A stretch of 64,000 bases of DNA from Ricordea florida (lineage: Eukaryota > Cnidaria > Anthozoa > Corallimorpharia > Ricordeidae). Positions 30,740 to 64,000 of the stretch are shown here, one piece after another. The position numbers and the translations under genes are program-made. Every line of letters begins with the position of its first letter. Position 1 is the first letter of the stretch. The notes below the pieces were generated by a model, which worked only from the letters and a program-made list of their open reading frames with translations, did no database searches and was not told where the DNA came from. Where the stretch lies: the NCBI GenBank assembly GCA_949710005.1, contig OX453272.1, positions 21,668,891-21,732,890 of the forward strand, given 5' to 3'.

Positions 30740-30741
30740 TC

Positions 30742-37556: not shown

Positions 37557-37569
37557 GACATTAATATTC

Positions 37570-38253
37570 TCATTCCTTAGGTTTACGGCATTCTTTACAA
37601 GATCTTTTATCCTTATTGTGATAGCATATTTGAGAACCTCCACAGTCCTTACAAAATGATTTCTGTTTACCGTGAGGACATATTTGTGAGCCTCCACAGC
37701 CCCTACAAAATGATTTCCGTTTACCGTGAGGACATATTTGTGAGCCCCCACAGTCCCTACAAAATGGTTTATGTTTACCGTGAGGACATATTTGTGAGCC
37801 CCCACAATCTCTACAATAAATTTTACACTTACCATGAACACATATGGCATTACCCCCACACTCTCTACAATAACGCTTTTGCCTACCATGAACACATATG
37901 GCATTACCCCCACACTCCTTACAATAACGTTTATGTTTACCATGAACACATATACCCTTACCCCCACACTCTATACAATATGATTTAAACTTGTCATGTG
38001 GACATATTTGCGAACCTCCACACTCCTTACAAAATTGTTTCTGCTTACCATGGGGACATATTTGTGAGCCTCCACAATCCCTACATTGATTTCTCCTTCT
38101 CTTACCGTGTGGACATTTGATTAAATTTTTAACAAGACGTTCAATCTTAACGCAAACTTCATCCAAACTATCCTGGGGGATGTTGAACAGTGTTTTAATA
38201 ATTTCCTTATTTCTGGCAACAGCTCTCAGCTCTTTCACTGGCAAATTCTCCAT
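37570..38253 (-). CDS. SAP-like start plus ten Cys/His repeats (element B)
   Basis: 227 aa. The first residues (MENLPVKELRA) are TIR-encoded and shared with B PolB. A ~35-residue divergent stretch is followed by about ten 18-residue repeats with CxxC-x5-CxH spacing ('CRDCGGSQICPHGKQKQF' type), about twice as many as in A. Each repeat is 54 bp at DNA level, which invites expansion and contraction. Probably zinc binding, with a role in nucleic acid or protein contact; function unknown. Confidence 0.75.
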   Translation of the reverse strand: MENLPVKELRAVARNKEIIKTLFNIPQDSLDEVCVKIERLVKNLIKCPHGKRRRNQCRDCGGSQICPHGKQKQFCKECGGSQICPHDKFKSYCIECGGKGICVHGKHKRYCKECGGNAICVHGRQKRYCRECGGNAICVHGKCKIYCRDCGGSQICPHGKHKPFCRDCGGSQICPHGKRKSFCRGCGGSQICPHGKQKSFCKDCGGSQICYHNKDKRSCKECRKPKE

Positions 38254-38341
38254 GATCCTCGCTTGTGAATATTACCCACGTCTTTAAGACGTTTCAGTGG
38301 CAGCGCGGGGCCGATTCCACTTTTTCAAAAAATGCGATTCA
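38213..38341 (-). repeat. Right TIR of element B
   Basis: Inverse of 6961-7093 with scattered changes. It lacks the last five bases of the left tip (AGTAG), so the outer end is truncated or mutated. Confidence 0.8.
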
Positions 38342-46400: not shown

Positions 46401-47274
46401 TTAGACCTACATTGACCTGAACACCAGTCTGAGGGCTAAAGCGGGGAATGACTTTGAGAAGGATTTCTTCAAACTAATGAATAACTCTGTATTTGGAAAG
46501 ACTATGGAGAATCTCAGAAAGCGAGTTGACATTCAATTGGTCACTAATGAGAAGCAGGCGCGTAAATTGATTGTTAAGCCAAACTTCCAACACAGGAACA
46601 TCTTTTGCGAGAAGCTGGCTGCCTTCCACATGAAGAAAACTAAACTAGTATTTGATAAACCAATATATTTAGGGCTATCTGTGCTGGATATAAGTAAGAT
46701 TACTATGTATGATTTTCATTACAATTACATAAAGCCAAAGTATGGTGATAAAGTCAAGTTGCTGTTCACAGATACAGACTCTCTTACATATGAGATACAG
46801 ACTGAGGACTTTTACAAGGATATAAGCCCAGATGTGAGGGGCAAGTTCGATACCAGCAACTATCCCAAAGATCACCCATCTGGAATTGAAACGGGAGTGA
46901 ACAAGAAAGTTGGAGGCATGTTCAAGGATGAAGCTGGCGGTGAACAGATAACAGAATTTGTGGGTTTAAGAGCCAAACTATATGCTTTCAAAACAGATAA
47001 CCAGAGTGAAGTGAAGAAGTGTAAGGGTGTTAATAAGTCAGTGGTGAGTAAGAGTATAAGTTTTGAAGATTACAAGACTTGCCTTTTCAGTGGCCAATCT
47101 CAGAGAAGGAAGATGAATACCATAAGGAGTCACAAGCATGATATCTACACTGAAACAGTTAATAAGGTTGCATTATCACGCGAGGATGACAAACGTGTGA
47201 TAATGGAAGATGGGGTAAATACCTATGCACATGGTCACTTCAGAACGCTAGCAGGTGGTAATTCAGTGTCTTGA
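43411..47274 (+). pseudogene. polB: Element C protein-primed family B DNA polymerase, broken
   Basis: Starts 'MENLPVKELRAIAKKAG' with two SAP-like repeats, as in B. Landmarks: 'YADFECF' (about 44838), 'CHICEGELRG..DHCHITG', 'NLSGYDSHL', 'DANGLYGHAM', 'KLMNNSVFGKTMENL', 'FTDTDSLTYE' (about 46760). Breaks: one-base loss near 44530, a 20-base deletion near 44618, an in-frame TAG at 45623-45625 created by three extra bases, and a one-base gain near 46400. Closer to B than to A throughout. Confidence 0.93.
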
Positions 47275-48222
47275 GGTACAAACTGAAGTTCCTCACGAAC
47301 GAATCCTCGTTTTGGGCCTCCATCTAAATAGTACAAGACTGGTTGCCCCGGTTCAACTATAGTTCTGGCTAAATCATAGACCTCAATACTCCATATAGGG
47401 TCAGTAGCTCTTCGTCTGTCTCCACCTTAATCTTCACCAGGGGCATATAAATACCTGACTTCAACATCTGGAGGTAATCTCTTCTCATCCAATCCCACAG
47501 GTCTCTTATACTCTGGAGTTTTAATATCAATTGACTCCATTTTCAAAGCTTCTTCAGGCTCTTTACCAGTAATACGGGTTGGTTCACTATTCAGAGTCTT
47601 CATGATGGCGGGTAATCTTTTCACCCAAACTGTGGATCTGTTTCCACTAACCATCTCTTGAGCGTATTGATGGCTGAATAATTTCTCACCAAGAGTCCTA
47701 TTGGCTCTCTCAACAAAAGCTTGAGCTCGATGATTACCAGCTTCACTCCGCTGAATTGTAACCTGATGCTTATTCATCAGATTTGTCACATCACCCTTGA
47801 ATTCCGTGCCCGGATCCACCATTAATGTCTGTGGCCATTTCAATTTACGGGAATAAATCCTCTCAAAGGCATTAGCAACTTCACCACTGTCCTTTGAAGT
47901 CAATGCCTCAGCATCCTTATACCTTGAAGCAATATCAATCACGACTAGCGCATATCTGTATGTTTTTCTTCTCACTGTATCATGAGGAAGAAACAACAAG
48001 TCTGCCTGATGAATCTGATTGGGCTCATTCACACTCCAATGCGGCCTTGGTATATACTTGGGAGCTGGGAGGTATATTTGCCACAAGGCCTGTTTCTCCA
48101 ACCACTCTTTAGCAATCTTTTCACTAACTTTGGCTGCCTTGGGTAATTTGCTTATGGCTGAGTATCCTTTCCAATCCATCAGTGGAGTAATATAATCGAC
48201 TTAAAACTTCAGAATCGCTCAT
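47235..48222 (-). pseudogene. int: Element C integrase, broken
   Basis: Starts 'MSDSEVLSRLYYSTDG' at 48222. A two-base deletion near 48178 shifts frame, and TAA replaces a Glu codon at 47427-47429. The DDE core with 'LMVDPGTEF' and 'AFVERANRTLGEKL' is intact between. It is convergent with PolB and overlaps its end by about 40 bases. Confidence 0.9.
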
Positions 48223-48249
48223 TTATAAACAAGAATATAAGCATTTAAA

Positions 48250-49491
48250 ATGACTGCTATACCAAACATTCTTGATCCTAATCGTGTTCCAAGGACGCGT
48301 GAAGGTTTGAAGGCGGGGGCGTCATTAAATCGGATCACGTTAAATCCCTCATCAGCCGAACCTGGTGAGACATTATACATTGAAATACCCAAGTTGGCTG
48401 AAAACTTAGTGATTGTGCCTGGTAGCGTGTACATAACTTTTGATATGGTTGTAACCGGGCACAAGGACAACACTCTTGTTAATAATTTGGGAAGGAACCT
48501 AGTTTCACAATATAGAGTTTTATTCGGGGGTGAAATCCTAGCGGATCTTAATAGATTTGATTTATTCAAAACTTATCATGATTTGTTTTTGTCAGAAGCA
48601 GATCGTAAGAACAGATTGAGACAGGGTATATCAGATGAGAATGTGAGGAGAATTAGAACCAATGCAAGTAACAAAGATACCTCAAAAGTAAATCATCATA
48701 CTATAGCTTTGATTCATAACACCAGATACGCGATTCCATTGGATCATTCAATCCTCAAAGATCATGGAGTATTTTACCCAAACGTATTACCACATCAACT
48801 TACATTTGAATTAACTTTAGCTAAAGTTTCTGATGTTGTAGTTTACTCAAACAGTGAAACACCACCTGATTATAAATTAATAAACATGGAAATGGAGTAT
48901 CAGTGCATATCAAGTAATCAATTGGCCAATCAAGCTATTGCATCATATCAATCTGGAAGGGGGTTCACGTATGAGAAAATACTTCTTCACAAAACGTTTA
49001 CAATCTCTGAGGCTAATGATGGTGTGATTAATCAGCATATTAACGTTCCAAGGAGATCCATGACTGGCATACTATGTATTTTCACTGCTCCTTATGCGGC
49101 AGGTGCTAGGGATTCTGAGAATTTTGCAAACCCAAAGATCACATCGGTTAAGATTGATATAGATGGAGTGCCCAATCAAGTTTATTTGAAAGGTATGATT
49201 GCTAGTGATTTATGGCAATCCATAATTAAGCGAGTTGGTGTCAGTGATTCAATCAAAGAGGCTAATTTCTATACAGATAAGTTTGCTTTGTGGATTGATA
49301 TGAGGACTTATCCAGATAATAATATTCATGGAAATGGTTTGTATATTGCTGCCACTCGTGATGGTGTTAGTTTGGAAATTAAAAGAGAGAAGGTGAAGAG
49401 TGGGGGTAGAGTTCTTACATGCTACATGTTCGTTGTTGCTGATGCTGTCATGATCATTAATAAAGGTAGTCTAAAGGAGATTAAATATTAG
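48250..49491 (+). CDS. mcp: Major capsid protein, double jelly-roll type (element C)
   Basis: 413 aa, open. Very close to the A copy ('LNPSSAEPGETLYIEIPKL', 'TLVNNLGRNLVSQYRVLFGG') although the flanking integrase and ATPase resemble B. Start after 'catttaaaATG'. Confidence 0.82.
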   Translation: MTAIPNILDPNRVPRTREGLKAGASLNRITLNPSSAEPGETLYIEIPKLAENLVIVPGSVYITFDMVVTGHKDNTLVNNLGRNLVSQYRVLFGGEILADLNRFDLFKTYHDLFLSEADRKNRLRQGISDENVRRIRTNASNKDTSKVNHHTIALIHNTRYAIPLDHSILKDHGVFYPNVLPHQLTFELTLAKVSDVVVYSNSETPPDYKLINMEMEYQCISSNQLANQAIASYQSGRGFTYEKILLHKTFTISEANDGVINQHINVPRRSMTGILCIFTAPYAAGARDSENFANPKITSVKIDIDGVPNQVYLKGMIASDLWQSIIKRVGVSDSIKEANFYTDKFALWIDMRTYPDNNIHGNGLYIAATRDGVSLEIKREKVKSGGRVLTCYMFVVADAVMIINKGSLKEIKY

Positions 49492-49504
49492 GCCGCTATA
49501 TGTT

Positions 49505-49532
49505 TTTCTTCTCACATTGTCATGAGAAGAAA
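49505..49532. promoter_or_regulatory. Stem-loop between MCP and ATPase (element C only)
   Basis: TTTCTTCTCA pairs perfectly with TGAGAAGAAA. The same sequence theme occurs inside the integrase gene (about 47958-47995), so this may be a copied fragment. A and B have no such spacer. Confidence 0.6.
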
Positions 49533-49566
49533 CATTAATCTAAAGGAGTTAATGTATTGAGTAATG

Positions 49567-50196
49567 ATGAATGAACTCAGAGATAAGGTGCCATTCAATT
49601 GCATCATAACTGGACCTACTAATTGTGGAAAGACCCAGTACCTGGTGGAACAGCTTCGAGGGCATTATAGGCAAGTATTTGATTATATTGTGTTGATTTG
49701 CCCAACATATGCCCATAACAAGACTTATAGAGACTTTGCAAAGGGGGATAAACGATTCTTTGTACTGTCGCCAGACTCGAGTGATCAGGATGAAATCAAC
49801 AACTTGTTAATGCATTGCTCCTCATTCTTCTCAGATGGGAATGCGCTCATAATATTGGATGATTGTGCAGTTTCCAAAGACTTGAAGAAGAGATCCAACA
49901 AATTCATTGATTTAGCTTTCTCTGGAAGGCATATAGGGATATCAGTGTGGGTTCTCACTCAGCAGCTCACATCCATAGCCAAACCATTCCGGGAGAATGT
50001 GGCTTGTGTGGTTTCATTCCATAATCCATCACAAACGGCAATGAAGATGCTTTTCGAGGAATATGGCGGGGACCTGGATGCTGAAACTTGTAAAAAATAT
50101 AAGAAGCATCTTAAGAATGAAAAGTATGCCAGACTCTGCTTCTCCCATAGGCATCCATTCAAAAACTATTTAGAAATACCAGCGCTTACAGCATAA
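49567..50196 (+). CDS. FtsK/HerA-type packaging ATPase (element C)
   Basis: 209 aa from the ATG at 49567 that matches the MNEL start of A and B; an ATG directly before it could add one Met. Walker A GPTNCGKT and 'LIILDDCA' present. Open, and close to the B copy. Confidence 0.93.
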   Translation: MNELRDKVPFNCIITGPTNCGKTQYLVEQLRGHYRQVFDYIVLICPTYAHNKTYRDFAKGDKRFFVLSPDSSDQDEINNLLMHCSSFFSDGNALIILDDCAVSKDLKKRSNKFIDLAFSGRHIGISVWVLTQQLTSIAKPFRENVACVVSFHNPSQTAMKMLFEEYGGDLDAETCKKYKKHLKNEKYARLCFSHRHPFKNYLEIPALTA

Positions 50197-50532
50197 CTAT
50201 GGCAACTCCTGAAGATATCATGAACGATCAAATCGCGGTGGGAGGAAATGAGGAATCAAGACACGTTCTAAAACCATTTGGGATATTCTAAAACTATGAT
50301 TTTTTGGCAATATTGAGCTTTTTTATAATTACCTTACCAATTTCCCTAAAAAACTATACAAATTCAACTAAGAAATCCACTGGTTTGCCATGATTTTACT
50401 TCAGCTGGTAAATTAGAGCCAATTTTGTGTAAGGTGCTCCAATGCATGGAAGGAAATGTCAAACAATTTCAAAATTAGGGAAGGTAGTAAACGTAGTGAG
50501 AAATGAAAGTAAAGGACCTTAATATTTCCATG

Positions 50533-50820
50533 TTCCATCCAGCCAAGGTATGCAAGGGAACATGGAAATTTCCATATTCCTTTCACAGACACAACGTAAA
50601 GGGGTTTGGAAATTTCCATGTCCCTTTCACAGACACAACGTAAAGAGGTTTGGAAATTTCCATGTCCCTTTCACAGACACAACGTAAAGGGGTTTGGAAA
50701 TTTCCATGCCCCTTTCACAGACACAACTTAAAGGGGTTTAGAAATTTCCATGTCCCTTTCACAGACACAACGTAAAGGGGTTTGGAACTTTCCATGTCCC
50801 TTTCACAGACACAACGTAAA
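50533..50820. repeat. 44-bp minisatellite, left array (~6 copies)
   Basis: Unit 'tttggaaatttccatgtccc' plus 'tttcacagacacaacgtaaa' plus 'gggg'. Each unit carries the palindrome GGAAATTTCC. Same unit and orientation as 57490-57862. Confidence 0.9.
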
Positions 50821-51696
50821 TAAAAGCGAAGATAACAAAAGCGTCATATATCTTGCCTTTCAAATAACCTTTTACTGTTACATATTAATGCATTGATGCA
50901 ATTATATTGCTTTGAGCCTTACAAGTAATCTAATAATTTTCACATCTCGAAAACACTGTTGTGAGATTTTCCTAAATTTTAAGATCATTCTTAAACCCTT
51001 CTAAGGCTGAGATTGACCTACACAATAACAATGCAATAATACAATGCAATAACTGAAATGTTCTTTTTCTGTAAGAAAAACCTAAGAGCACCTCCAGTAA
51101 CCAGCTTGGTAGGAAAGACATGGATAGAACCGTAAGAATGACAATTCACGTTTGTGTACTCATGTTCTCCACAAACTTTTAATCAGGTGCTCATTTCGAG
51201 AGAGAACGGCAACAGACTGTGTACCAAAACGCAAATCAGACGCCCCAGGTTCGCAGGGCGCCTTATTTTGCTCATTAAACCTATTGTTCCCTTTTTTCGC
51301 GATCTCGCTACCTTAACCATTGTCATTTCTTAAACTCCCATTGTCAAAGGAAACTGCAAAAACGCGATGGAATTTTTTTCCCTATAAATCAATCAAATTG
51401 GTAAATTTCACTATTTTTCCTGTATTTCAACAACTTTCCGCCTAATTGGTTTAAGGTTCGTCTCATCGGTTTCGGCTACGATGCGATTGAATTCTCCAAT
51501 TTACGCACAGGCAAACAGTAGCAGAACCTGGAAAGAAGAGCAAAATCCAAAATGTTAGCATTGTTTGCGAGTATTAGGCACAATTTTTGGGCCTCAACTA
51601 CAAACCGTTAAGGAGAAGAAGCGACATTTTCATTTTTGCTAGCAATTACAAACACATAAAATTTGTCAATTTCAGTATTTAACGCAACTTCCATTC

Positions 51697-52467
51697 TTAA
51701 GGGGGCCGTCTAGTCAGATTTTTTGTTAATTTTCGGTCATCCAACCATTTTTTATATTTTTACTTAAAACTATATTTTAACCCATCTACTTTAAGTTTTC
51801 GAAGTCTTTTTCACATAAATTGACCTGTCAAAGCTGATAAAAGCGATTTTCGTGATGTAATGTGCCAATGGCGATCGGTTGCCATGGAAACGGTTAAGGA
51901 AAAGTTTCAATTTGTGCCAACTTTAAGAGCATTTTTCTCAAATTTGCCTTTTTCCGGAAGTAGGCATCTCCCCCTAACTATTTTTTGCTTAAGTATATGA
52001 CCAATTGCTGTGAAAGTTGGCACAGACGGCCTTTAGGATGTAAACTATGATCCTATGGAGCGAAATTGGATTAAGTTAAATACTTGAGGAGATATCTGTT
52101 CTACACCCATATTTGGAAGGATTTGGTTGCCATGGGAACACTTATGACCTTACCCCGAAACCGCTCCATAGGATCATAGTTCAATCCATGTTAGTTATGG
52201 ATAGAAAGTGGAATTCATTTTCAATGAATTCTGCACATAACAAGTATGTGGGGCAGACGGCAACCCTCAGCTGATAAGGTCAAATTCAGGAGTTAATCAT
52301 TAACTATCTTTTAACTACTTCATCTCAAGTTACACCTTCCTGTGTAGGTCATCCTGAAGGGATGTTCTGGTGAAAATTCATTGTTTTCTATAAAATCGTT
52401 GCAGAGCTCTGTTGTTTTAAAGATGCTTAGAACATTTCTCTGAAATTTGACTAGACTGCCCCCTTAA
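51697..52467. mobile_element. ~763-bp MITE with TTAA target duplication
   Basis: TTAA flanks both ends; arms GGGGGCcGTCTAGTCAgATTT and its inverse pair with a few mismatches. TTAA duplication fits piggyBac- or Kolobok-type non-autonomous elements. No coding capacity. An inner inverted match ('ccataggatcatagt' type) near 52030 and 52165 adds further foldback. Confidence 0.75.
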
Positions 52468-52499
52468 CAGCCGGTCTAACGTGATCAGGAGTGTATCTA

Positions 52500-53165
52500 A
52501 TTGTGGAGAGTCAAGAGTAAAATGTCAAGAGTCGAGGGTAACATGTCGAGTGTCGAGGGTAACTTAAAAATTATATTAAAGTAATGTGACCAAAAATAAA
52601 AATCAAGACAGAATTTTCTGTCGCCAACTCTTCTTTTTTTGGATTAACGCGTTGTTTTTTAGGACTGTAGAACATTATTATAAACCAGTAACTAACTTTG
52701 TTTTCATTATTTTCATGCCATACTCTCCAAGTAAATAAAATTAACGCAAACACAGTGGATTGAAATAGGGTTACGTGAAGTACTAAAGAATAGGGAATGG
52801 CATGTCTGTTATCTTATCTTAGCCTTCAATGCCTGCCTGTTTGTTCATTGACTGCCCGATATATAAACATACTTTCAAACAGTTCTCTCTAGTTTATTTG
52901 GTTTTTGTTGGAAACTGTGCAATACTAAACCACCAGTTCTAAAGCAGGATGTAACCGTAGTCTTTTGAGCGTACGAGTGTACTATATGCAGTTACTACAC
53001 TCAAGACTATAAGGAGGGAGAAGTCATTTGGCCGTGTCACGCAACGCTTTACTCAAAAAAAAGAAAGAAAAGCTGGCGAACGAAAATTCTGTTTTGATTT
53101 CTATCTCTTATTTTTCACTTTATTTTAATATATTTTTTTAAGTTACCCTCGACCCTGGACATGTT
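52500..53165. repeat. Long-inverted-repeat element (~120-bp arms)
   Basis: 52530-52645 and 53035-53160 are inverse copies with about 80 percent identity by eye, sharing 'gtcgagggtaacttaaaaa' and 'acagaattttc'. Probable old MITE. Confidence 0.65.
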
Positions 53166-53360
53166 ACTTCGGTTTAAAATACAAGCTTAACTTTAGCACG
53201 ATGCTTGGTTACTTCGTTCCTTTTCAGTTAAAGCTCTTGTTTATGACACAGTGAACTTTTGCCAATCAGTGCTATTCCATTCATAATTTGATTTTATTTA
53301 GCAATAGGTAATGCGATGTATTTACGTAAACGTCTCAATGAAATGGTGTTATTTGCTGCT

Positions 53361-53675
53361 TACGTCGGCATCAGTGGTGCGGCATGAATTCTCTCTAATC
53401 TTAAATTTAGTCCTTGAAATGCAGTTGATAACAACAGACTCAGTCGTCAGCGTGTGGTCTCTTCCGCAACGTGAGGAGCAAGGTCACGATATTTCTTGAA
53501 GATCCTGTTTATATGATCATAGAATTTTTATAATCTTGATTTGAAGCTAGAATAATTGAAATAACGTCGGCTTCAGTGGTGCGGCATGAATTTTCTCTAA
53601 TCTTATATTTTTTCGTTGAAATGCAGTTGATAACAACGGACTTCAGTCGTCAGCCTGTGGTCCCTTTCAGCATAT
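53361..53675. repeat. Direct repeat of ~107 bp (two copies)
   Basis: 53363-53465 and 53566-53668 share 'cagtggtgcggcatgaattyt', 'gaaatgcagttgataacaac' and 'cagtcgtcagc'. The copies start about 203 bases apart. Function unknown. Confidence 0.75.
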
Positions 53676-55116
53676 ATTTGTCATTGGCACAAGATCCAGT
53701 CAACTAACGTCTTCCAGTTGAATAACATTTACTCGAACGATAGCGGACATGTGTACTTCACCAAGCTTTAAACTTAGCTAAACGAGAGGCTTTTCTATAT
53801 GAAAAATGAATTATTTTGAAACTGAAACCTAAAATATATCTTTGAAGCATTTTAGACCCTATTGACGGCGTCACCCTTTAGTTTTCAGACGCACCTATTC
53901 GGCCAAGAATGGAAAGCATTGGAAAAGTTCTGACGTATATAGTTGACTTTCTTAGTTGAAATCACCCCGAAAGACTCTTCAGATCATATTTTTCAGAACG
54001 GTTGAATTTCTGTCACATAACTTGACATGCATGGATAAAAATGTTCGATTACGGGTCACAAGTGAAACTCAAATTAATTTAACCTTGTTAGTGCTCTGAG
54101 GAAAACTAAAAGTGGATAAGCTCTGTACCTAAAATACATTGAGCCTCCGCATCTGCATGCATGCACATCAAATGAATATGGACACCTTGACGTTCGGGTT
54201 ACTTTTTGTCGACCGTTAACAAATTTTCGCGTATCTTTCGCGCCTAACCTTAATCAGCAACATAACTTAATATATCATGCAGAATCCGGCATATGGAATA
54301 ACAGATTATCAATACTTTCACACATTTACACTACGAACATAATTTGAAACTAACAATACCTTCAAATTGTCCTTCTCCGCATTTGACTTAAAGACTCCTA
54401 TTTTCACCACTCCTCCATATTCTTCACCGCCAGATTTTTTCAACGGACTTTTCCTCTAAATATTCGAACCTTGACTCCCTCCTTCACAGAGTACCACTTA
54501 GTATCGGAACCCGTCTTCCTACGCATGATTTTTCAACGTTGTGCTATCGTTTTCTCTTCAAATGTGAAGTAAGCACGTCTTTATCGCCTCTGTGAATGCA
54601 CCATTCTGAACAAAGGCCGAAGCTGATTGACGTACGTCTCCTGTGGCGGTTAGCCTTTTTACCGCTAACATCTGAACCACGCTATGTTTCTTAAATTTTG
54701 TATCTGTCTGTTATTATTTTTGATAACGATCTTGAGCAACATTTTGAGTGTACTTGTTTATGCTTTTAGCGGTTAAAAGAAATATACATTTCTGGTTTGA
54801 AACTAAATTTACTGTGTGTTTTCGTATTTCCACAACCGTAAGTAACATCGGCTGGGCGTTTCCTTACGAATTGCTCACATACCGATTTTAACACTCTGGC
54901 ACGCAATCCTAAGAAGAGCGACATCACGCATATTATTGATATCCGTTACAAGTTCGGATTTATACCTTTTTGAGCCTCTCCTGGTCTCTATGGCGGCAAA
55001 GAGGGTTGCCAGTTGTTCAGATTACTCGGAAATCGAAAACAGATTTTTAATGGCTCGGGTGTACTTCATAGCCCTACCACTAGCCAAAAAAATATAGTGA
55101 CCTCTTCGAATCAGAT

Positions 55117-55443
55117 GTGGCAGAAGAAACAGTTGAAATACGAAATCACCTAAGGGTAGGAATAGCCTCCAGCAACCTATTTGAACTAATTGGTGAGACT
55201 GGAAGTCCTACTGAAACCTTTGCCCTAAGTGCGATATCTAGCGAACTTTACGAGCCTCTGGATTCGAGTGGAGCTGCATTAACTCCAGTTTTCTCAGATG
55301 AAAATGCAACCAGAGCCAATTTGTCATCTAGCAGCTCGTGTTCCAACAACAGACATCGATATATTAGAGAGGATGAAGACTTGGGATGCTTTCCACTGCC
55401 AGAAGCTGACGAGGAGTTAGCCCAGGGCCCTCTGATGGTAAGT
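55117..55443 (+). other. Possible captured host exon
   Basis: An open frame of ~109 codons with balanced, Ser/Glu-rich composition ends at 'ATG|gtaagt' (about 55440), a good splice-donor match. No ATG-started gene or homology is recognised. It might be an exon carried in or overrun by the 8.1-kb insertion, or chance. Confidence 0.3.
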
Positions 55444-55499
55444 CACCGAACTGATCAACACGTTGATTCTTCTAAAGACACTTCTCTCTCATAGAAAGA

Positions 55500-57480
55500 A
55501 AATCTTTCCTACACTATTGTATTAGCCGGGGCTTTTGAATTGCAATTGCTACTGGCTGCCGGGCCCTCATACCTAAAGTTCTTATAGGAAAACGGAGTCC
55601 AAAACTTTGGTATGCTGAGTTCATTCATTTATTGCAGATTCATCCATTCGCTTTCTAGAATTTACAGACTTGGATAAAGGTCTTTACAAAATGATCTAAA
55701 GGCCTCAAATTCAACCATGATGGCTAATGAGTAATTGTCGGTGAGATCGAATTGCCAGAAAGGTTAATTAGCCCAAGCTTCAACGAAATTGTCTTTTTTT
55801 TTTCTCGGTCTGATTCTCCAGTGTCAGCCTGGTTTGCAAGAATATATTAAGTAAAAAATTAATTACTAGTCGAGAGACTGAACACACATTCAATAACGCG
55901 TTACTGCCTATTATCTCTCGAAACATGCGCCGACGTTTAGTTTTTGAGGAAATGTGAATTTTTCAGTGCTGGATGCCAAGACAAGAGGGGGTGTCACGAA
56001 AAGCAGACAATCTACTGAGTCGACGGGTTACGTTTACGTATCTGACTTCGTTTCTTCGACCACCTGAGAACTCTCAGTGTTATGACACGTAAAAGTGGTA
56101 CGCTTCGCGTGTGCCATCAATTCTACGGAACTTTCAGAATCCTACAGGTTAACAACCAACATGAACATTTTTGTACTCGTTATTGAACCGGTGTGTTTTG
56201 GAGGGTTCGGGAGCGTTTGGGCAAAGGAACTGACTTTTCGTACCACTCAAGAAATTAAGGAATTGACTCTATATCTCCCTAAGTAAATGTGCTGAATGCT
56301 CGTGCAATAGAATTTAGAATTAGATTTCGCAATCTTCGCTGGTGAATCCATTCTCGTGAAACGGAAATTGTCAATCAATAATGGGATAATGATTTGCTCG
56401 ATACCAAAAAAAAAATCGTAGCGATGGCATAAAGTCACAAGAACAAATTTCACGCGACAATGGAAACGACAAGTGAAAGCCGTCGGAAACGAAAATATCG
56501 AGCTAGAGTATTTGAAAGGGACATAGGGGACTGAATGGAGAGCATGGAAGTTATCAAATGGCAACATTTTCCTTTAGTAGGTTTTAAATCAAATGACAAT
56601 AACAAGCTCAGCAATGAGACGTACAAATAGCAAAAGGAAACACAAAAAACTTCAAGAAAGTAATTAGCTCAACAAAATTTACTTCTGCAATTGAACTGTT
56701 TCTAAGGAAGCACTTGTCACGTTGACTTTCACTGTGACCTCAAGTTTAATTGAAAATTAACTATTTTTAAAAGAACGGATCTGTTGATTTTAACGACGCT
56801 GCGGCGGCGATATGGACGTATAAAACCAATCCTTCAGGAAGTCAACGCTATTCAATGCAAAAACGGTTCAGCTTTGTGACGTTCTGTAATTTTATGAGCG
56901 GGAACTTTCCCTACACCTACACAGCACAGTATAAAGGGACAAATTTAAGTGGGGCATTCCTTCCAGACAGCTTTATCATTAGTATGCTACCTTTACGTTT
57001 CGTTCTTTACAGAACGAAACGGTTTCCTATGTGTTTCATTCAGCCGATTATGAAATATACTCCGACAACCTGTGAGGATTGATGCCTCTGCTGTCACAGG
57101 TTTTCACATAAGAAAAGCAAAACCGAGAGCCAGACGATTTCTAGTAATACTTTTAAAGTTGTCACTACCAGATAATTGTAGACGTCTCCCGCTGGCTGGG
57201 GACAAAAGGTGTAGCTCAAACTTTTAAGTGCAGGTGTCGGTTTGTAATTAACAATAAAATTTCTGTTTAAAAATATTAAATTGTAATGTTACTTCAAGCC
57301 GCGCAATGCAAAGCAACGTCGAAGTTCCCATGCTCCTTTTATGCTGAACGATGCGAAAGAAAATACAAATTTCCAAGATGTCTTTAAATTATAGCTCAAG
57401 CGAAAGGCACGTGGAAATTTCTATGTTAGTTCATGAAGCTAAAATGAAAGTTCCATGTTCTTTTGTTTAGCTCAAATAAA
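55500..57480. other. Unassigned AT-rich DNA
   Basis: No frame above ~106 codons, and none with recognisable content. A C-rich stretch of 'aaatttccatg' related to the 44-bp unit begins near 57370. Nothing else supported. Confidence 0.5.
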
Positions 57481-57489
57481 AGGAAAATG

Positions 57490-57862
57490 CAAATTTCCAT
57501 GTTCCTTTCACAGACACAACGTAAAGGGGTTTGGAAATTTCCATGTCCCTTTCACAGACATAACGTAAAGGGGCTTCGAAATGTCCATGCTCCTTTCACA
57601 GACACAACGCAAAGGGGTTTGGAAATTTCCATGTCCCTTTCACAGACACAACGTAAAGGGGCTTGGAAATTTCCATGTCCCTTTCACAGACACAACGTAA
57701 AGGGGCTTGGAAATTTCCATGTCCCTTTCACAGACACAACGTAAAGGGGTTTGGAAATTTCCATGCTCCTTTCACAGACACGACGCAAAGGGGTTTGGAA
57801 ATTTCCATGTCCCTTTCACAGACACAACGTAAAGGGGTTTGGAAATTTCCATGTCCCTTTTA
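57490..57862. repeat. 44-bp minisatellite, right array (~8 copies)
   Basis: Same unit as the left array, in the same orientation, with 44-base steps (CACAG at 57509, 57553, 57597). Open frames through it are by-products of the period and carry no gene. Confidence 0.9.
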
Positions 57863-58899
57863 TTTAACTCAAATCAAAAATGCATGAAAATATTCTCCTT
57901 CCTTTTCCTTACTCCAGCTGATGGATAAAATAAAATTGTTGATCTTTTGTTCCCTTTTTTCCCTTATCATTGCAAGATTTATGTAAACTGTTAACATGTT
58001 CTAAAAACTGTGAATGATGATGTTTATTACCCCCCAAAAACCTCCATCTCTTTTTATTTGGACGAGAACGGGAAGTAGCTCGTGATATGCACCATGTTTT
58101 CTACACTTATGTCAACAGACCGCCATTTTCATTAACATTCGGTCAGTACAATAGTCGTCGAACGTACACAGTTGGTAAAAAGATTAAAAATTTAATTTTG
58201 GGTGGACATACTGTAATTATGTAAAAGTTGGCAATAAACTCACATAAAAAAGAAACTTCTACCATACATTACATCACTAAGGCAAAAAAATAACCAAGCA
58301 AAGTGTTTATTGCCATAAATGCGATTTTTTTCTGGCACAAATAGTGACGAATTATCTCACTTGTTCCAGAAAGTGGTTTTTAGAATATCCCAAATGGTTT
58401 TAGAACGCGTTTCAATAACCACTGATGATTTGCAAGCTAAAAGAGAATCACTTTCAATACTAGCATGTTTAGGCTCTACTAAGGAGTATACTGGCTTTCA
58501 AATGGATTTGAAAGATACACTTAAATTATCAGACAAAGATGTTGAAAAGTACTACAAAAGGTATCAGGTTGTGTCTGGGAAGAAGGTAGCTGATGGAATA
58601 ATAGATCCTTCTTTACAGCTAATAGCTCAATTAGTTGATAGGTTTGGTAGTAAGTTTGGTAGTATAGATTCTATAGAAGCCCTAGTAAGTGAATGGAAGA
58701 ATAACCAGTTGTTTATGCAAAAGATATCAGAAATATCTGGTTCAATGGTACTGAAGGGTGGTAGACTTACTGCATTAGTAATAGGATTGATTATTGCTCT
58801 TAAGCATTTCAAAATAAGGGAACCTACTACTGTTGATGAGCATGTTGGAGTTGATACTGTTCGTTAATAGAAAAAATTTGAGTAACATAAAAATTTAAA

Positions 58900-59384
58900 A
58901 TGAACAGGTCCGTCGATAGTGTAATCAATATATTCAATCAGAAAGAGACAATGTTGACCCCAGCTACTAACTATAACAATTTGGAATTAATGGACTGGGA
59001 TCAGCCATTTGATGATGAGCCAGAGCTAGATTTTGAGGATATTTATAATATTACTTTTATGATCAGCCGTTTGATGATGAGCCAGAGCCAGATTTTGAGG
59101 ATATTCATAATATTATTTATGATCAGCCAGATCCAAAGAATCCTTTAGATGATGATTATAAACTATATTTTGTTGGTGGTGAGCCATATGAGTCAGATGA
59201 GCCAGATAAGCGAGCATGTGATGATCCCCTTATAGACGGAATATTCCACGAGTTTTATATGCGTAATATTGTACATGAGGAGTTATTAAAAGTTGCTTTG
59301 GATGAGAATCGTTTGAATCGTTTGTGGAATTGGTGTGAGTACTATGATACAAGAGAGGCTAAATCGTTAGATGATGTTTATTAA
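58900..59384 (+). pseudogene. Asp/Glu-rich protein, distant F2 relative, broken (element C)
   Basis: Starts at ATG 58900 after 'aaatttaaaATG'. A 60-bp tandem repeat encodes 'DQPFDDEPELDFEDIYNI'-like units; the first unit has two extra bases, so the rest continues in another frame to TAA 59382-59384. The end 'EELLKVALDENRLNRLWNWC' loosely matches the F2 C-terminal motif, and the position (between F1 and F4) is where F2 lies in A. Confidence 0.6.
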
Positions 59385-59406
59385 TATAATTCACTACTTA
59401 TTAGTT

Positions 59407-59429
59407 TCCTAGTATGACTCTTACTAGGA
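59407..59429. promoter_or_regulatory. Stem-loop before F4 (element C)
   Basis: TCCTAGTA pairs perfectly with TACTAGGA, followed by agactTAAAG and the F4 ATG at 59462. Homologous to 32312-32334 in B. Confidence 0.7.
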
Positions 59430-59461
59430 GACTTAAAGGTTAGAATAGGTTAACTTACAAC

Positions 59462-59871
59462 ATGTCTGAAGAAACGCAACAAACTGAGCAGATCACTAAG
59501 GAACCTGATGTTAAAATAAAGGTCAAATACCCTAAGAGAGTAAAGGCCGGTAAAACACTATCAGAGAAAAATAAGAAGGCTAGAGAAGCTCTGAAACGTG
59601 ATTAGAGGAAAGAGATGCTTTGAAGCGTGAAAAGGGTCCTGATGATGAAACTGGAAAGGATTGGCTGCCAAATGTGTCATTCCAAAATGTTCTGACTATA
59701 GGCTCAATCGGGCTCGCCGCCTATGCCTTATTCATAAACTATAGGGATAGAATACCTGATTTACATGTACCACCAACTCGTAACTTCAATCCACCTCCAA
59801 TGAAAACAATAGATAATAGTGCAAGTCAGCAGCCCAAAGAAGAAAATAATTTAAAAGATGACTTAATGTAA
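59462..59871 (+). pseudogene. F4 Lys/Glu-rich membrane protein, broken (element C)
   Basis: Opens 'MSEETQQTEQITKEP' and reaches TAG at about 59603 in the charged region; the membrane segment and tail ('FQNVLTIGSIGLAAYALF') are open in another frame from about 59620. Close to the B copy. Confidence 0.8.
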
Positions 59872-59878
59872 TTCATAA

Positions 59879-60100
59879 ATGGCTGATAATAAGCTAGTAA
59901 AGACAGTTACTGACTCTGCAGTGTTGATTGGGCTGGCAGCAGCTGTTGGCTATGTTGGTAAAAAAGCTTTGAGAGAGACATTCATCAGTGATCCATCATC
60001 CAGTATTATGAATTATGGCAAATGGGTAGTTGTATTGAGTGCAAGCATGTATCTCAAAAACTATTTAGAGGATCAAAAGATACTTCCTACAAATGGCTAA
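59879..60100 (+). CDS. F5 small membrane protein (element C)
   Basis: 73 aa, starting 'MADNKLVKTVTDSAVLIGLA'; conserved in all three elements. Its end overlaps the next gene start by eight bases. Confidence 0.75.
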   Translation: MADNKLVKTVTDSAVLIGLAAAVGYVGKKALRETFISDPSSSIMNYGKWVVVLSASMYLKNYLEDQKILPTNG

Positions 60101-60449
60101 TCTGAATACTGCTGAAGAGAAATATAAGAGAGCTTTATTTGATTACATCAAAGGATGTTACATGCATTATAAATTTCACAATGAACCTCCTGATCAGTTG
60201 AAAAGTCTTATTAGCCCACGTGAAAGGGCTGAAATCATAAAATGGTATTATGATCAAGATCCAAAATTGTATACTCCCTATGAACCAAAACTAAGCTATT
60301 TTATATTGAAGGAAGAAGAAGAACAAAGAAAACGAAGAGCAGAGAGGGGGCATAAGGGTGAAATAAGCATACCCAGAGTCCTCATGACAGCCACTGTGAT
60401 AGTCACCATTTCATCAAACATAATGTCAAAATTGTTTAAGAGTAAATGA
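60093..60449 (+). CDS. Hypothetical protein, 118 aa (element C only)
   Basis: Charged helical protein with an Arg/Glu-rich segment (~75-90) and a C-terminal apolar helix 'VLMTATVIVTISSNIM'. It takes the slot held in A by an unrelated 74-aa gene. Not recognised; probably membrane-anchored. Confidence 0.6.
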   Translation: MANLNTAEEKYKRALFDYIKGCYMHYKFHNEPPDQLKSLISPRERAEIIKWYYDQDPKLYTPYEPKLSYFILKEEEEQRKRRAERGHKGEISIPRVLMTATVIVTISSNIMSKLFKSK

Positions 60450-60462
60450 TTAAACTATATAA

Positions 60463-60876
60463 ATGGCGAGTATAGCAATCATGCTTGGTGGTGCAGTCCT
60501 AAATAAAACAGCCTTCATTGGTGGAAATTATATAGCAAAGGCACTTAGTGGCTCATCCTCCACAGATCTCCAACTTGAAAGAGAGAGGCATGACAAGGCA
60601 ATGGAGAAATACCAGAAAGATTACACTGCTTACGAAGAGAAACGAATGGCCTATATTGACTTTATGAATAAAAGAAGAGGTGATGCCAACCAGGCCTCTG
60701 ATAACATATCAAAGACTGATGAAGCACTCAAATTATACAGCCAAATGGGCAATCCACCTAAATTCTCTGACTATTATAGACCCAATTCAGATCAAAAAAT
60801 GGGAGAAATGGCTTATGTTTCTGGTGGTATGCTAGCCCTTGGATATATTACGAGCAAGTGGCTACTATATATATGA
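60463..60876 (+). CDS. F6 membrane/coiled-coil protein (element C)
   Basis: 137 aa, same layout as in A and B, with a slightly extended end. The stop codon overlaps the next ATG (ATGA at 60873-60876). Confidence 0.75.
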   Translation: MASIAIMLGGAVLNKTAFIGGNYIAKALSGSSSTDLQLERERHDKAMEKYQKDYTAYEEKRMAYIDFMNKRRGDANQASDNISKTDEALKLYSQMGNPPKFSDYYRPNSDQKMGEMAYVSGGMLALGYITSKWLLYI

Positions 60877-61139
60877 CCAACAAAGTTTTAACAGACAATA
60901 CAATAACTCAAAATGAATATACTCGTATGGTAGGTTTAAGAGCTAAACAACTCAAACTTGGTAGTAAACCTGTTATAGAATGGATAGGAGCTTTTGATCC
61001 TATAGCCATTGCTAAGAGTGAAATCAAACAACGTGTTTTGCCAATGGCTATAGTGAGAAAAATCCCAGACTGCAATTCAAAGACTGGTTTCCGTAATGAA
61101 ATATGGAGTCTAAAAGATATGAATATACGAGACTTTTGA
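60873..61139 (+). CDS. RPB6 / omega-like RNA polymerase subunit
   Basis: 88 aa from ATG 60873, overlapping the F6 stop. 'ITQNEYTRMVGLRAKQLKLG' followed by 'DPIAIAKSEI', 'LPMAIVRKIPD' and 'NEIWSLKDM' follows the RPB6 pattern (YExxRxxGxRAxQL ... PxxIAxxEL ... IPxxIxRxxPD ... ExWxxxEL). RPB6 is the shared small subunit of eukaryotic RNA polymerases; large DNA viruses carry versions. It lies between F6 and F7, where A has nothing and B a duplication remnant. Whether it joins a host polymerase is unknown. No other polymerase subunit gene is in the window. Confidence 0.75.
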   Translation: MTNKVLTDNTITQNEYTRMVGLRAKQLKLGSKPVIEWIGAFDPIAIAKSEIKQRVLPMAIVRKIPDCNSKTGFRNEIWSLKDMNIRDF

Positions 61140-61158
61140 AATCAATTTAGAAAGTTAT

Positions 61159-61178
61159 CATATTCAACTTCAAATATG
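61159..61178. promoter_or_regulatory. Short stem-loop at the F7 start codon (element C)
   Basis: CATATT and AATATG pair around an 8-base loop, with the ATG inside the right arm; homologous to the A and B hairpins. Confidence 0.55.
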
Positions 61179-62112
61179 GCAACTGCTGATCCTGATTTAG
61201 ACCCAACTAAACTAAATGATCCAGGGGATGATGATGGAGATTATGATGATGGAGATAATACGATTTATATGAGCCCAGTGGTCGTAATGATCAACCACTT
61301 ATGAAGATCCTGATGATGAAGAAGAAACATCATTTGGTGGTGATGAAACCCGCCCCTTGATAGAAGAGATGGAAGTCGAACGAGATGAAGCTTGGGCTAA
61401 GATCAGAGCAAGATTCCCCAAAGTTGATACTTCCAAGTTTACAGCTGGGATGAATGAATTAAAGCAAGTAGTTGTGAAATTGCTTAGAATTAATTCAGTA
61501 CCTTATGTGTTATTCAAAGGTGATGAATTGAATGACAAATTGCCGGGTACCATAAAGAATAGTCTAGGCCCAAGAGCAGAAGATATTATTGAAGCTAATG
61601 ATGGTGAGATATCTAAGAAAAAGACCATGTTAACCAAACTGAAGGATAAACTAAAATTCCATAGAGACAAGCCACTAAAAACTCCAGAGGAAAGTAGCCA
61701 AATAGAAACTCTCGAGAGAGAAATTGGTGAGCAGGAACAGGAGATAGCTAACCTGGAGGGTGAGAATGAACAAATACAGGAACGAATGTCATTGCGAGAC
61801 CGGGTAAAGGCTATATTCAAGAAATATGGTTTCACAGTCTTTGCTGTTATGAGTGCAGTTGGAGTAGTCATTGGTGTTATAGTCTCCAATCTCTCCAAAG
61901 GCCTCTCAAGATTGGGTAAAGGCGTTGGTGATGGACTAAAGACAATTGGTAAGAAGCTGGGTGAATTACTGCCTGAAATGATTGGCGCGATTGTAAGCTT
62001 CCTATTCAAGACTGCTGGTGAGGTCATTTCATTCTTGGGCAAGAACGCTTGGCTGTTAATAGTGGCAGTTGTACTTTACTTTGTAGAGGAATTAAAGAAG
62101 AAACATAAGTGA
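61176..62112 (+). pseudogene. F7 coiled-coil/amphipathic protein, frameshifted (element C)
   Basis: The acidic N-terminus opens at ATG 61176, but a deletion near 61280-61300 shifts frame. From about 61306 the other frame is open to 62112. The middle resembles B ('IRARFPKVDTSKFTAG') whereas the coiled coil and tail resemble A ('EESSQIETLEREIGEQEQE'), pointing to a recombination point inside the gene near 61650. Confidence 0.8.
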
Positions 62113-62118
62113 ATATAA

Positions 62119-62298
62119 ATGAAGAGCTATTGCGTCAAAGAGAAAAAACAAACTGACTGTGTGCCTGGCAGTGAAACCTTCACCAAAACTTCCAAAGGGA
62201 GGCCCATGATGAAGTGTAAATGTTCCAGCTGTGGCATCATCAAAACTTGATTCCTCTCAGATGCTGATTATAGAAATTTAAAGGAGACTAAGGAGTAA
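62119..62298 (+). pseudogene. F8 small zinc protein, nonsense-broken (element C)
   Basis: Same 59-codon design as B's F8 ('MKSYCVKEKKQTDCV', 'KCKCSSCGI'), but TGA at 62248-62250 replaces an Arg codon after the last Cys pair. Confidence 0.7.
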
Positions 62299-62304
62299 TC
62301 CAAA

Positions 62305-62937
62305 ATGTTGAGTATTACCATGTATGAGTCTGAAACTAGGGTGTACTTGGATCCTCCCCTGGAAACAGTTCGGGAGATACAACTCCTTGACTGCAGTATC
62401 CCCAAACGATTAGTGAACTTCAAGAATCGCCAGATATTGCTCAATGAGGAGAATCAACCCCTCATAATAATCATGCCTGGCACATATTCACTGCATAATA
62501 TCCAAGCGATCTTTCTTAATGATACGGATAGGGCTAAGATCTCAATCATTGAGACTGATACTGTTGACTATCTCTATTCCAATAAGATCTTCAACATTAA
62601 ACTTACTAGAGGGCTACAAGTTGGTTTAGGGGTACCTGAAGTCATAAATCCTGGCAAATTATACCCCATAAATATACAGATTAAGGGGCCACTGAGACTT
62701 ACTTGCAGTATAGTGGACAACAAGTCATCATATGTGAATAATACTCAATCTACAGGACCTGTGAAAATCTCACCCTCATACCTACTTGCCAACATACCCT
62801 CACAGGATTACCCAACCATCCCAGCACAGAAATATAAGAGCCCCATAAATCACTTCGATTTAAGTATACTCGATAGTGAATGGAAAAAGCTTGATCTTAA
62901 GGGTTCACCAATCACAGTTAGTTTAAGTTTCAAATAA
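62305..62937 (+). CDS. Penton-like minor capsid protein (element C)
   Basis: 210 aa, open. 'REIQLLDCSIPKR', 'IIIMPGTYSLHNI' and 'LDLKGSPITVSLSF' as in A and B. Start six bases after F8. Confidence 0.68.
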   Translation: MLSITMYESETRVYLDPPLETVREIQLLDCSIPKRLVNFKNRQILLNEENQPLIIIMPGTYSLHNIQAIFLNDTDRAKISIIETDTVDYLYSNKIFNIKLTRGLQVGLGVPEVINPGKLYPINIQIKGPLRLTCSIVDNKSSYVNNTQSTGPVKISPSYLLANIPSQDYPTIPAQKYKSPINHFDLSILDSEWKKLDLKGSPITVSLSFK

Positions 62938-62969
62938 CATTTTAAAAGGAAGTGATTCTCATGTCAAAA

Positions 62970-63569
62970 ATGGTTGAATATAATGCAATCTATCCCAACT
63001 TAGAGGCAACTGCACCTCCAATCCCCACTGATGGGCCGTCATTCAGACTTCAAAAATGTTGTGATGCCTTGAATAAGCTAAAGTCTGAATTAAGCCGCTA
63101 TGAGACAGTGCTCAAAAAATATAACCGATCCAAGGGTGTACTAATGAATGCAAGCTCGACCTGTGGTATACTATCTTGCGTTTTAGCAGCTGGTGGATTG
63201 GGCACATTTCTTAGTGGAGTTGGAATCATAGCATCTGTACCCTTGGGTGTAATAAGTGGTGTATTTGTGTGCGCATCCATAGCATGTCAGCAAATATCCA
63301 AGAATCTATCCAAGAAGGCTGTAAAGCATCAAAACACCATTACACTGGCCAAATCAAAAATAAACACCATTGAAGACTTGGTTTCAAAAGCGCATCGTGA
63401 CAATAAGATCTCTGATGAACAATTCTCATTAATTATAGAAGAGCTTGATAAGTTTGACAAGCTCAAAGCTGAAATAAGGACTAAAGCTCAAAAAAATCTG
63501 AGTGGAGAAGACATTATGAAGTTGAGAAAGAAAATACGCGAAGTAATAGCCAAAGAACTAAAAGGATAA
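62970..63569 (+). CDS. F9 membrane protein (element C)
   Basis: 199 aa from ATG 62970, which gives the 'YNAIYPNLEATAPP' start of the family; an in-frame ATG at 62961 adds three residues. The Gly-rich apolar block and helical tail are nearly identical to A's. TTTAAAAG lies upstream at 62941. Confidence 0.72.
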   Translation: MVEYNAIYPNLEATAPPIPTDGPSFRLQKCCDALNKLKSELSRYETVLKKYNRSKGVLMNASSTCGILSCVLAAGGLGTFLSGVGIIASVPLGVISGVFVCASIACQQISKNLSKKAVKHQNTITLAKSKINTIEDLVSKAHRDNKISDEQFSLIIEELDKFDKLKAEIRTKAQKNLSGEDIMKLRKKIREVIAKELKG

Positions 63570-63629
63570 CCATAACTTACGAAAATTTTAAATACTAACT
63601 TAAAGCTGGAATAATCCATTAGTATAACA

Positions 63630-63896
63630 ATGAATTTGAGTCCAACCCAAGCTAAATTTATTAGAAGATATACAAGATGTAACCTTGAAAGATTCTATCT
63701 TACACAAAGATATAGCGATGATAAGCCACGTAGACTAATTGATGTTTTTGAGTGGAGAGATTGTAATGTTTCTCCTAGATTTATCTTTGAAACAAAACTT
63801 AAAATCCAAGATGATGGTAGCGTTTCACTTAATGAAATCCCAAAATATTTCAAAGATAAGATTCTTAAGGATCTTGGTATTGATACTACAAATTAA
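63630..63896 (+). CDS. Hypothetical protein, 88 aa (element C only)
   Basis: A basic N-terminal half (Arg/Lys/Tyr-rich) and an acidic C-terminal half, no membrane segment. It lies between F9 and F10, where A has an unrelated 139-aa gene. cTTAAAGctgg precedes it. Not recognised. Confidence 0.6.
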   Translation: MNLSPTQAKFIRRYTRCNLERFYLTQRYSDDKPRRLIDVFEWRDCNVSPRFIFETKLKIQDDGSVSLNEIPKYFKDKILKDLGIDTTN

Positions 63897-63915
63897 TGAC
63901 TTAAAAGTTTGAACC

Positions 63916-63940
63916 CTTCTACCCAAATTCTGGATAGAAG
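63916..63940. promoter_or_regulatory. Stem-loop abutting the F10 start codon (element C)
   Basis: CTTCTACCC / AAATTCT / GGATAGAAG, identical to A, with the ATG at 63941 directly after it and cTTAAAAG upstream at about 63899. Confidence 0.8.
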
Positions 63941-64000
63941 ATGGGCTTACTTGATGATTTTAGAAAAAGGCATCCAAAGGCTGACTTGAGCCAATTTAAA
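63941..64000 (+). CDS. F10 large conserved protein, first 20 codons only (element C)
   Basis: The start MGLLDDFRKRHPKADLSQFK matches the A form, not the shortened B form. The gene continues beyond the window. Confidence 0.75.
   Translation, partial: MGLLDDFRKRHPKADLSQFK

What the first reader, a model, noticed from the sequence alone, without database searches (positions are those of the whole stretch)
60873..61139. RPB6/omega-like RNA polymerase subunit in a second Polinton
The 88-aa gene follows the RPB6 motif order closely and is tightly packed (ATGA overlap) in the capsid-side run of C. With the TFIIB-like gene in A, two related elements carry different pieces of transcription machinery and no polymerase core, which suggests modification or recruitment of the host polymerase.
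Basis: partly seen in the sequence, partly recalled or inferred. Interest (0 to 1): 0.88.

Follow-up and report, generated by a model that had tools for sequence, protein, structure and literature searches.

The report
RPB6 polymerase subunit in Polintons
A large family of virus-like transposons in what is probably an animal genome carries its own version of a small RNA polymerase subunit, unlike the host's own copy, while sister elements carry a TFIIB-like factor instead, which suggests two alternative ways to commandeer a polymerase they do not appear to encode.

Summary
The ORF at 60873-61139 is a genuine RPB6-family gene by sequence (PDB E 7.8e-8; profile 2e-11). The Pfam score is below cut-off (20 of 26 bits) and the AF2 model is too poor to test the fold. 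It is no one-off: the host genome gave 374 candidates, 150 scored, 144 of 150 without a stop. All 48 copies read (chosen stop-free) share one slot, 45 of 48 with a TAATG stop-start overlap; median dN/dS 0.28. The host has a separate, human-like RPB6. A tree groups the Polinton gene with environmental RPB6s, some on 176-534 kb contigs (probably giant viruses, not named), and rejects a host-sister origin (p-AU 0.004). Element A's TFIIB-like gene is supported by fold; among the 150 and 140 best copies the two genes almost never share an element. Elements share a YTTARAR motif upstream of genes. Best reading: an exchangeable subunit placed into a borrowed polymerase. Whether that is host Pol II or a giant virus's enzyme is unresolved.

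The parts
60873..61139 (+). RPB6-family gene, 88 aa, without the long acidic N-terminal tail of human RPB6
60463..60876 (+). upstream partner gene (137 aa, unknown function); its stop overlaps the RPB6 start (ATGA here; TAATG in 45 of 48 copies)
61176..62112 (+). downstream gene (coiled coil / membrane type by eye), frame broken in C near 61.29 kb; first ATG at 61176
61146..61152 (+). promoter-like motif TTTAGAA, 30 bp upstream of the downstream gene's ATG
   Evidence: at -28 to -30 in 38 of 38 testable copies
43411..64000 (+). element C from its first gene on, a decayed Polinton cut by the window's right end
44612..47274 (+). PolB of C, broken into three frames
   Evidence: DNA_pol_B_2 36.9 bits, cut-off 25.8
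47427..48179 (-). rve integrase of C
   Evidence: 34.5 bits, cut-off 32.6
48250..49491 (+). major-capsid-like protein of C
   Evidence: Capsid_N 21.4 bits, cut-off 24; the A copy passes, (26.4)
49564..50196 (+). A32-like packaging ATPase of C
   Evidence: 47.2 bits, cut-off 22.8
50227..58318 (.). approximate insertion of about 8 kb that splits C
8240..25145 (+). element A, Polinton with 270 bp terminal inverted repeats 99.3% identical, nested in B
12244..13074 (+). TFIIB-like gene of A between PolB and integrase
20157..20196 (+). RPB6 slot of A: genes adjacent, no RPB6
6966..8239 (+). left piece of element B (interrupted by A)
25146..38341 (+). right piece of element B, carrying neither RPB6 nor the TFIIB-like gene
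33405..33655 (+). RPB6 slot of B: no RPB6, a partial copy of the upstream gene instead

Best explanation
This is a true RPB6-family gene that is a standard, selectively maintained gene of a large Polinton lineage in this genome, of probable giant-virus affinity rather than copied from the host. Shown: family membership by sequence, one fixed slot, many open copies, stop-start overlap with the upstream gene, a signal of purifying selection, exclusion from the host RPB6 clade, and near mutual exclusivity with a TFIIB-like gene among the copies tested. Inferred: the protein is made by coupled termination-reinitiation from the upstream gene's mRNA, is built into a multisubunit RNA polymerase that the element does not encode, in place of that enzyme's own RPB6, and tunes it towards the element's own YTTARAR promoters. 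Lacking the N-terminal tail through which human RPB6 contacts TFIIH, it would change factor contacts of the borrowed enzyme. Sister elements fill the same niche with a TFIIB-like factor. Most likely target: the host's nuclear Pol II.
For: Sequence. Slot: 48 of 48 loci read plus 5 of 5 further loci, L091-L095. Copies: 150 scored of 374 candidates, 144 of 150 without a stop. Selection: median NG86 dN/dS 0.28 over 1106 of 1128 pairs; pN/pS 0.37 over 24 disjoint pairs. Coupling: TAATG 45 of 48, ATGA 3 of 48; the promoter-like motif lies within 60 bp upstream of RPB6 in 0 of 48, of the next gene in 38 of 38 testable, of the gene before in 18 of 45. Origin: Polinton clade 100/99, joined to P0019-P0023 at 95/85; host-sister clade rejected, p-AU 0.0043. 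Host has its own RPB6 in two separate pieces, 96% and 81% identical to human. Exclusivity: 1 of 150 RPB6 copies within 12 kb of a scored TFIIB copy, on opposite strands; 3 within 20 kb against 1.5 expected by chance; 0 of 20 stretches upstream of RPB6 hold TFIIB, 15 of the 20 showing PolB and integrase; 10 stretches downstream of TFIIB, 6 show the slot, 0 of 6 with RPB6. The human RPB6 tail binds TFIIH p62, and its loss or mutation alters transcription (PMC8754651, passages).
Confidence: 0.5

Rival explanations
1. Virophage-like reading: the element's RPB6 (or TFIIB-like factor) enters the RNA polymerase of a co-infecting giant virus, so that the viral polymerase transcribes Polinton genes; the Polinton would be a parasite of a giant virus, as mavirus is of CroV.
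For: The RPB6 clade groups with environmental RPB6s, some on 176-534 kb contigs; ASFV C147L is the best solved match of the Polinton profile and aligns to near the C-terminal end; promoter-like motifs lie close to start codons, as in viruses with their own polymerase (recalled).
Against: No giant virus of this host was seen; environmental proteins carry no organism names; the search for polymerase core genes in the genome did not complete; the single-sequence search favours eukaryotic RPB6 over ASFV.
Confidence: 0.22
2. Decoy reading: the tail-less RPB6 replaces host RPB6 in nuclear polymerases to weaken host transcription or transcription-coupled repair, without directing the enzyme to the element.
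For: The 48 copies read are 84-89 aa and lack the tail; human cells with the tail removed or mutated have lower rRNA and lower expression of some genes, and tail mutants have defective transcription-coupled repair (PMC8754651, passages).
Against: Alternation with a TFIIB-like initiation factor points to initiation of the element's own genes; most environmental relatives keep a longer N-terminal part.
Confidence: 0.13
3. Structural or packaging reading: because it is coupled to a gene in the capsid-side run, RPB6 is a virion protein or assembly partner with no polymerase role.
For: Fixed slot in the capsid-side run and stop-start coupling.
Against: RPB6 core residues are kept across Polinton and environmental relatives.
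Confidence: 0.1
4. Neutral cargo: a captured gene without function.
For: A and B lack it, and C is decayed.
Against: 144 of 150 scored copies without a stop, dN/dS 0.28 in the 48 read, 48 of 48 in one slot.
Confidence: 0.03

Closest known systems
RPB6 / RPABC2 / archaeal Rpo6 / bacterial omega (PF01192)
   Same: Sequence match over the conserved core; 27 of 78 aligned positions identical to human RPB6
   Different: No long acidic N-terminal tail; an extended C-terminal end (GFRxEIW...RDF); carried by a mobile element with no polymerase core seen
Nucleocytoviricota RPB6 (e.g. ASFV C147L)
   Same: Best solved match of the Polinton profile, aligned to near the C-terminus (E 2e-11); the environmental relatives P0019-P0047 (P0031 left out) are 42-62% identical, their giant-virus nature being inferred
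   Different: ASFV RPB6 works in a full viral polymerase (solved structures); here the subunit is alone. The environmental profile itself matches eukaryotic RPB6 better than ASFV
Polintons / Mavericks / adintoviruses
   Same: PolB, rve integrase, A32-like ATPase, capsid protein; terminal inverted repeats in A and B
   Different: No RPB6 reported in the library searched: 'Polinton'+'Rpb6' gave 0 papers, 'RPB6'+'virophage' 0; the 8 papers with 'Polinton'+'TFIIB' were seen as a listing only
Virophages such as mavirus
   Same: Small dsDNA viruses that can integrate and that depend on a giant virus (abstract starts)
   Different: Virophages use the helper's promoters; donation of a polymerase subunit is not known to me (recalled)
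Viruses with transcription factors but no polymerase core (e.g. chloroviruses with a TFIIB-like gene; recalled)
   Same: A TFIIB-like factor without core enzyme
   Different: Here RPB6 and TFIIB-like genes alternate between sister elements

Membership tests
RPB6/omega (PF01192) | Profile or sequence match to RPB6 | tested here: met
   PDB phmmer 7.8e-8 and profile 2e-11; PF01192 E 6.9e-4 but below the curated cut-off
RPB6/omega (PF01192) | RPB6 fold | tested here: inconclusive
RPB6/omega (PF01192) | Assembles into a multisubunit RNA polymerase | not testable with these tools
   needs biochemistry
Nucleocytoviricota-type RPB6 | Groups with viral RPB6 in a tree, apart from host RPB6 | tested here: inconclusive
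Polinton | PolB, rve integrase, A32-like ATPase, capsid protein | tested here: met
   (C capsid just under cut-off, A above)
Polinton | Terminal inverted repeats | tested here: inconclusive
   A: 270 bp, 99.3%; B: 120 bp, 95%; C cannot be tested, its right end lies outside the window
Polinton | Adenain-type maturation protease | tested here: inconclusive
   No Pfam match among the ORFs scanned; not every ORF was scanned
TFIIB (gene of A) | Two cyclin-type folds | tested here: met
TFIIB (gene of A) | N-terminal zinc ribbon | tested here: inconclusive
   C31, H33, C46, C49 kept in 8 of 8 loci, but P0013 and P0015 lack this part; 1 of 10 relatives weakly matches Zn_Ribbon_TF
Virophage | Depends on a giant virus | not testable with these tools
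   no helper virus known here

The most novel reading that the evidence does not exclude
A Polinton family takes over an RNA polymerase through two interchangeable modules, either a giant-virus-derived, tail-less RPB6 subunit swapped into the enzyme or a TFIIB-like initiation factor, both acting on a shared YTTARAR promoter: a mobile element that customises a borrowed polymerase by donating one of its structural subunits.
Probability: 0.35. Interest if true: 0.93.

Novelty: new variant of a known kind. Interest (0 to 1): 0.8.

Why it matters
Polintons are thought to sit near the root of many eukaryotic dsDNA viruses (recalled), yet how they transcribe themselves is little known. A selectively kept RPB6, with no polymerase core seen, would be a mobile element that donates a structural subunit to someone else's polymerase, and its alternation with a TFIIB-like gene offers a natural experiment. 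Its link to probable giant-virus RPB6 would record gene exchange between Polintons and giant viruses, and makes the virophage question testable in this host.

Tried and rejected
Rejected: one-off or chance ORF. Rejected: a second RPB6 family (L094, L095), noted in entry 5 of the notebook; it is the same family with a six-residue deletion, as in P0004. Considered and not kept: a specific asfarvirus origin, because the environmental profile and the single window protein match eukaryotic RPB6 better than ASFV in PDB.

Led nowhere: viral-contig scans with RPB6, ATPase and capsid alignments (none confirmed); the PolB scan gave one distant contig, L003, among whose listed ORFs I saw no RPB6; genome contigs gave two archaeal loci, used as outgroup; phages none; the BFVD fold search of the poor model gave nothing meaningful. 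VIA-align of the RPB6 model listed no RPB6. TFIIB pN/pS over four pairs is 0.67, a weak signal.

Choices and dropped rows: the 48 RPB6 copies read (of 150 scored) are the window's copy, the 7 loci returned and 40 that I picked from its table, leaving out rows with a stop (6 of 150 have one). P0031, P0048, P0049 (short) were left out of the tree, where environmental rows were cut to their last 90-95 residues; 5 short rows (L010, L024, L032, L035, L086) were left out of the tree, whose bootstrap had not settled; 9 downstream and 2 upstream starts were not found, and 1 of each skipped; 22 of 1128 pairs lay outside dS 0.1-1.2. Gene starts for the motif test were chosen by me (13, 11 and 11 genes; doubtful starts left out), and the pattern was found before it was tested; homologous genes of A, B and C are not independent. 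In the narrower window -42 to -18, shuffles reached the observed count in 1, 0 and 10 of 1000. In one search, 5 of 20 stretches do not show both PolB and integrase, 4 of 10 stretches missed the slot. Chance expectation places copies at random on the 16 largest contigs.

Full report
Observation. The ORF at 60873-61139 (+) encodes 88 aa and its ATG overlaps the TGA of the ORF before it. It matches RPB6 chains in PDB: alone, the best is a eukaryotic RPABC2 (E 7.8e-8) and ASFV C147L follows at 2.2e-6; with a profile of it and five close relatives the best match is the ASFV subunit (E 2e-11), then eukaryotic RPABC2 (7e-10). PF01192 is the only Pfam family listed, at 20 bits, under the cut-off of 26; 6 of 6 aligned members match it, best E 5e-6. 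The AF2 model is poor (pLDDT 55.5). Foldseek still ranks RNA polymerase entries with RPB6-sized chains first (12 of the top 12, best E 2.4e-3, none at E <= 0.001, TM about 0.3; chain identity inferred from chain letters and length), but VIA-align lists none, so the fold remains untested.

Elements. An all-against-all comparison shows three related Polintons. DNA comparison shows that A (8240-25145, with 270 bp inverted repeats 99.3% identical) lies inside B (6966-8239 plus 25146-38341, with 120 bp repeats 95% identical), and that C starts near 43.4 kb, carries an insertion at about 50.2-58.3 kb and runs off the window. C has PolB (broken in three frames), rve integrase, A32-like ATPase and a capsid protein. 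In A the genes that flank RPB6 in C are adjacent; in B a partial copy of the upstream gene lies between them.

Genome-wide. The genome holding the window has 537.8 Mb in 48 contigs. RPB6 gave 374 candidates, of which 150 were scored; all 150 match at E <= 5e-35, 69-100% identical, 144 of 150 without a stop. I read 48 of these 150: the window's copy, 7 loci returned by the tool and 40 that I picked from its table, leaving out rows with a stop. All 48 lie between the same two genes and are open over 84-89 aa (openness is partly by my choice); five further loci, L091-L095, lie in the same slot. In 45 of 48 the stop of the upstream gene and the RPB6 start overlap as TAATG, in 3 as ATGA. Such overlaps are known from coupled termination-reinitiation (recalled). 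Median dN/dS is 0.28 (1106 of 1128 pairs), and pN/pS is 0.37 over 24 disjoint pairs. The host's own RPB6 is on C11, in two pieces about 2.6 kb apart, 96% (25 residues) and 81% (31 residues) identical to human; no Polinton gene matched in the 3.1 kb fetched around one piece. That the host is an animal is inferred from this gene and from BEL/Pao pieces in the window, which I recall as animal elements.

Origin. A wider search gave 47 proteins at E <= 1: short forms like the genome's copies, of which P0002 is identical to copy L031, and environmental proteins, 42-62% identical for P0019-P0047 (P0031 left out) and 38-46% for P0050-P0058; five lie on contigs of 54-534 kb, and most have a longer, often acidic N-terminal part. 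In a tree of 50 rows and 95 columns the eight Polinton rows form one clade (100/99) that joins P0019-P0023 (95/85), apart from eukaryotic and archaeal rows; holding Polinton and eukaryotic rows together is rejected (p-AU 0.0043). That these environmental proteins belong to giant viruses is inferred. Their own profile, without Polinton rows, matches eukaryotic RPB6 better than ASFV (2.8e-15 against 5.5e-12).

Alternation. Of 150 RPB6 and 140 TFIIB positions, one pair lies within 12 kb and three within 20 kb, against 1.5 within 20 kb expected by chance; two of the three are on opposite strands, and the third is 15.7 kb apart on one strand in the right order and could be one element with an insertion. 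Of 20 stretches upstream of RPB6, none holds TFIIB, and 15 show PolB and integrase. Of 10 stretches downstream of TFIIB, 6 show the slot and none of these has RPB6. In a tree of the upstream gene, five TFIIB rows form one clade (100/99), while one TFIIB row and B (neither gene) fall among RPB6 rows with modest support (88/76; bootstrap not settled), which hints at loss of RPB6 and replacement.

Promoter motif. [CT]TTA[AG]A[AG] occurs within 60 bp upstream of 7 of 13 (A), 9 of 11 (B) and 6 of 11 (C) chosen gene starts, against background rates of 0.036, 0.069 and 0.080, and on the opposite strand in 0, 1 and 2; dinucleotide shuffles reached these counts in 0 of 1000 for each element, and 60 bp further upstream the counts are 1, 0 and 0. 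The gene after RPB6 has it at -28 to -30 in 38 of 38 testable copies, the gene before in 18 of 45, RPB6 in 0 of 48, which fits expression of RPB6 from the upstream gene's message, though that gene shows the motif in fewer than half of its copies. The motif resembles a TATA box (recalled).

Mechanism. RPB6 is shared by Pol I, II and III, and its human N-terminal tail binds TFIIH p62; cells with the tail removed or mutated do not regain full growth, have modestly lower rRNA and much lower expression of some genes, and tail mutants have defective transcription-coupled repair (PMC8754651, passages). The Polinton protein consists of the core alone. The simplest reading is subunit exchange in a borrowed polymerase. 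Host Pol II is favoured because the element is integrated in the nuclear genome and no other enzyme is known there; a giant-virus polymerase is the main rival. Mriyaviruses, small relatives of giant viruses, lack polymerase subunits and are thought to use the nucleus (PMC11253617, passages), which makes a lone retained RPB6 more striking.

Literature. 'Polinton' with 'Rpb6': 0 papers; 'RPB6' with 'virophage': 0; 'adintovirus' with 'RNA polymerase subunit': one paper (PMC8363768), whose mention concerns a poxvirus (passages). Of the papers in the listings I saw titles and abstract starts only, except PMC11253617, PMC8754651 and PMC8363768 (passages). The library lacks most subscription journals and preprints, so novelty is provisional.

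Noticed in passing
window 6966-38341: Element A is inserted into element B; A's 270 bp inverted repeats are 99.3% identical, suggesting a recent insertion.
   Followed up: partly
window, upstream of genes in A, B and C: Shared promoter-like motif YTTARAR about 20-55 bp upstream of many start codons.
   Followed up: yes
window 12244-13074: TFIIB-like gene with 140 scored copies (290 candidates) in the genome, 133 of 140 without a stop.
   Followed up: yes
window 50506-50820 and 57479-57860: Similar tandem-repeat blocks (about 84-96% identical) near both ends of the insertion in C.
   Followed up: no
window 37570-38253 (-): ORF with many repeated Cys-His units at the right end of B; a relative at 24596-25024 (-) has a Rho_N start nearly identical to that of A's first gene, so element ends carry gene starts in their inverted repeats.
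   Followed up: no
window 7054-8256, 8370-9221, 43411-44550: First genes of B, A and C carry Rho_N-type domains.
   Followed up: no
window 1858-6616: BEL/Pao-type retrotransposon pieces (Peptidase_A17, DUF1759, DUF5641, Integrase_H2C2) left of the Polintons.
   Followed up: no
window 33448-33642: B carries a partial copy of the upstream gene in the place where other elements hold RPB6.
   Followed up: partly
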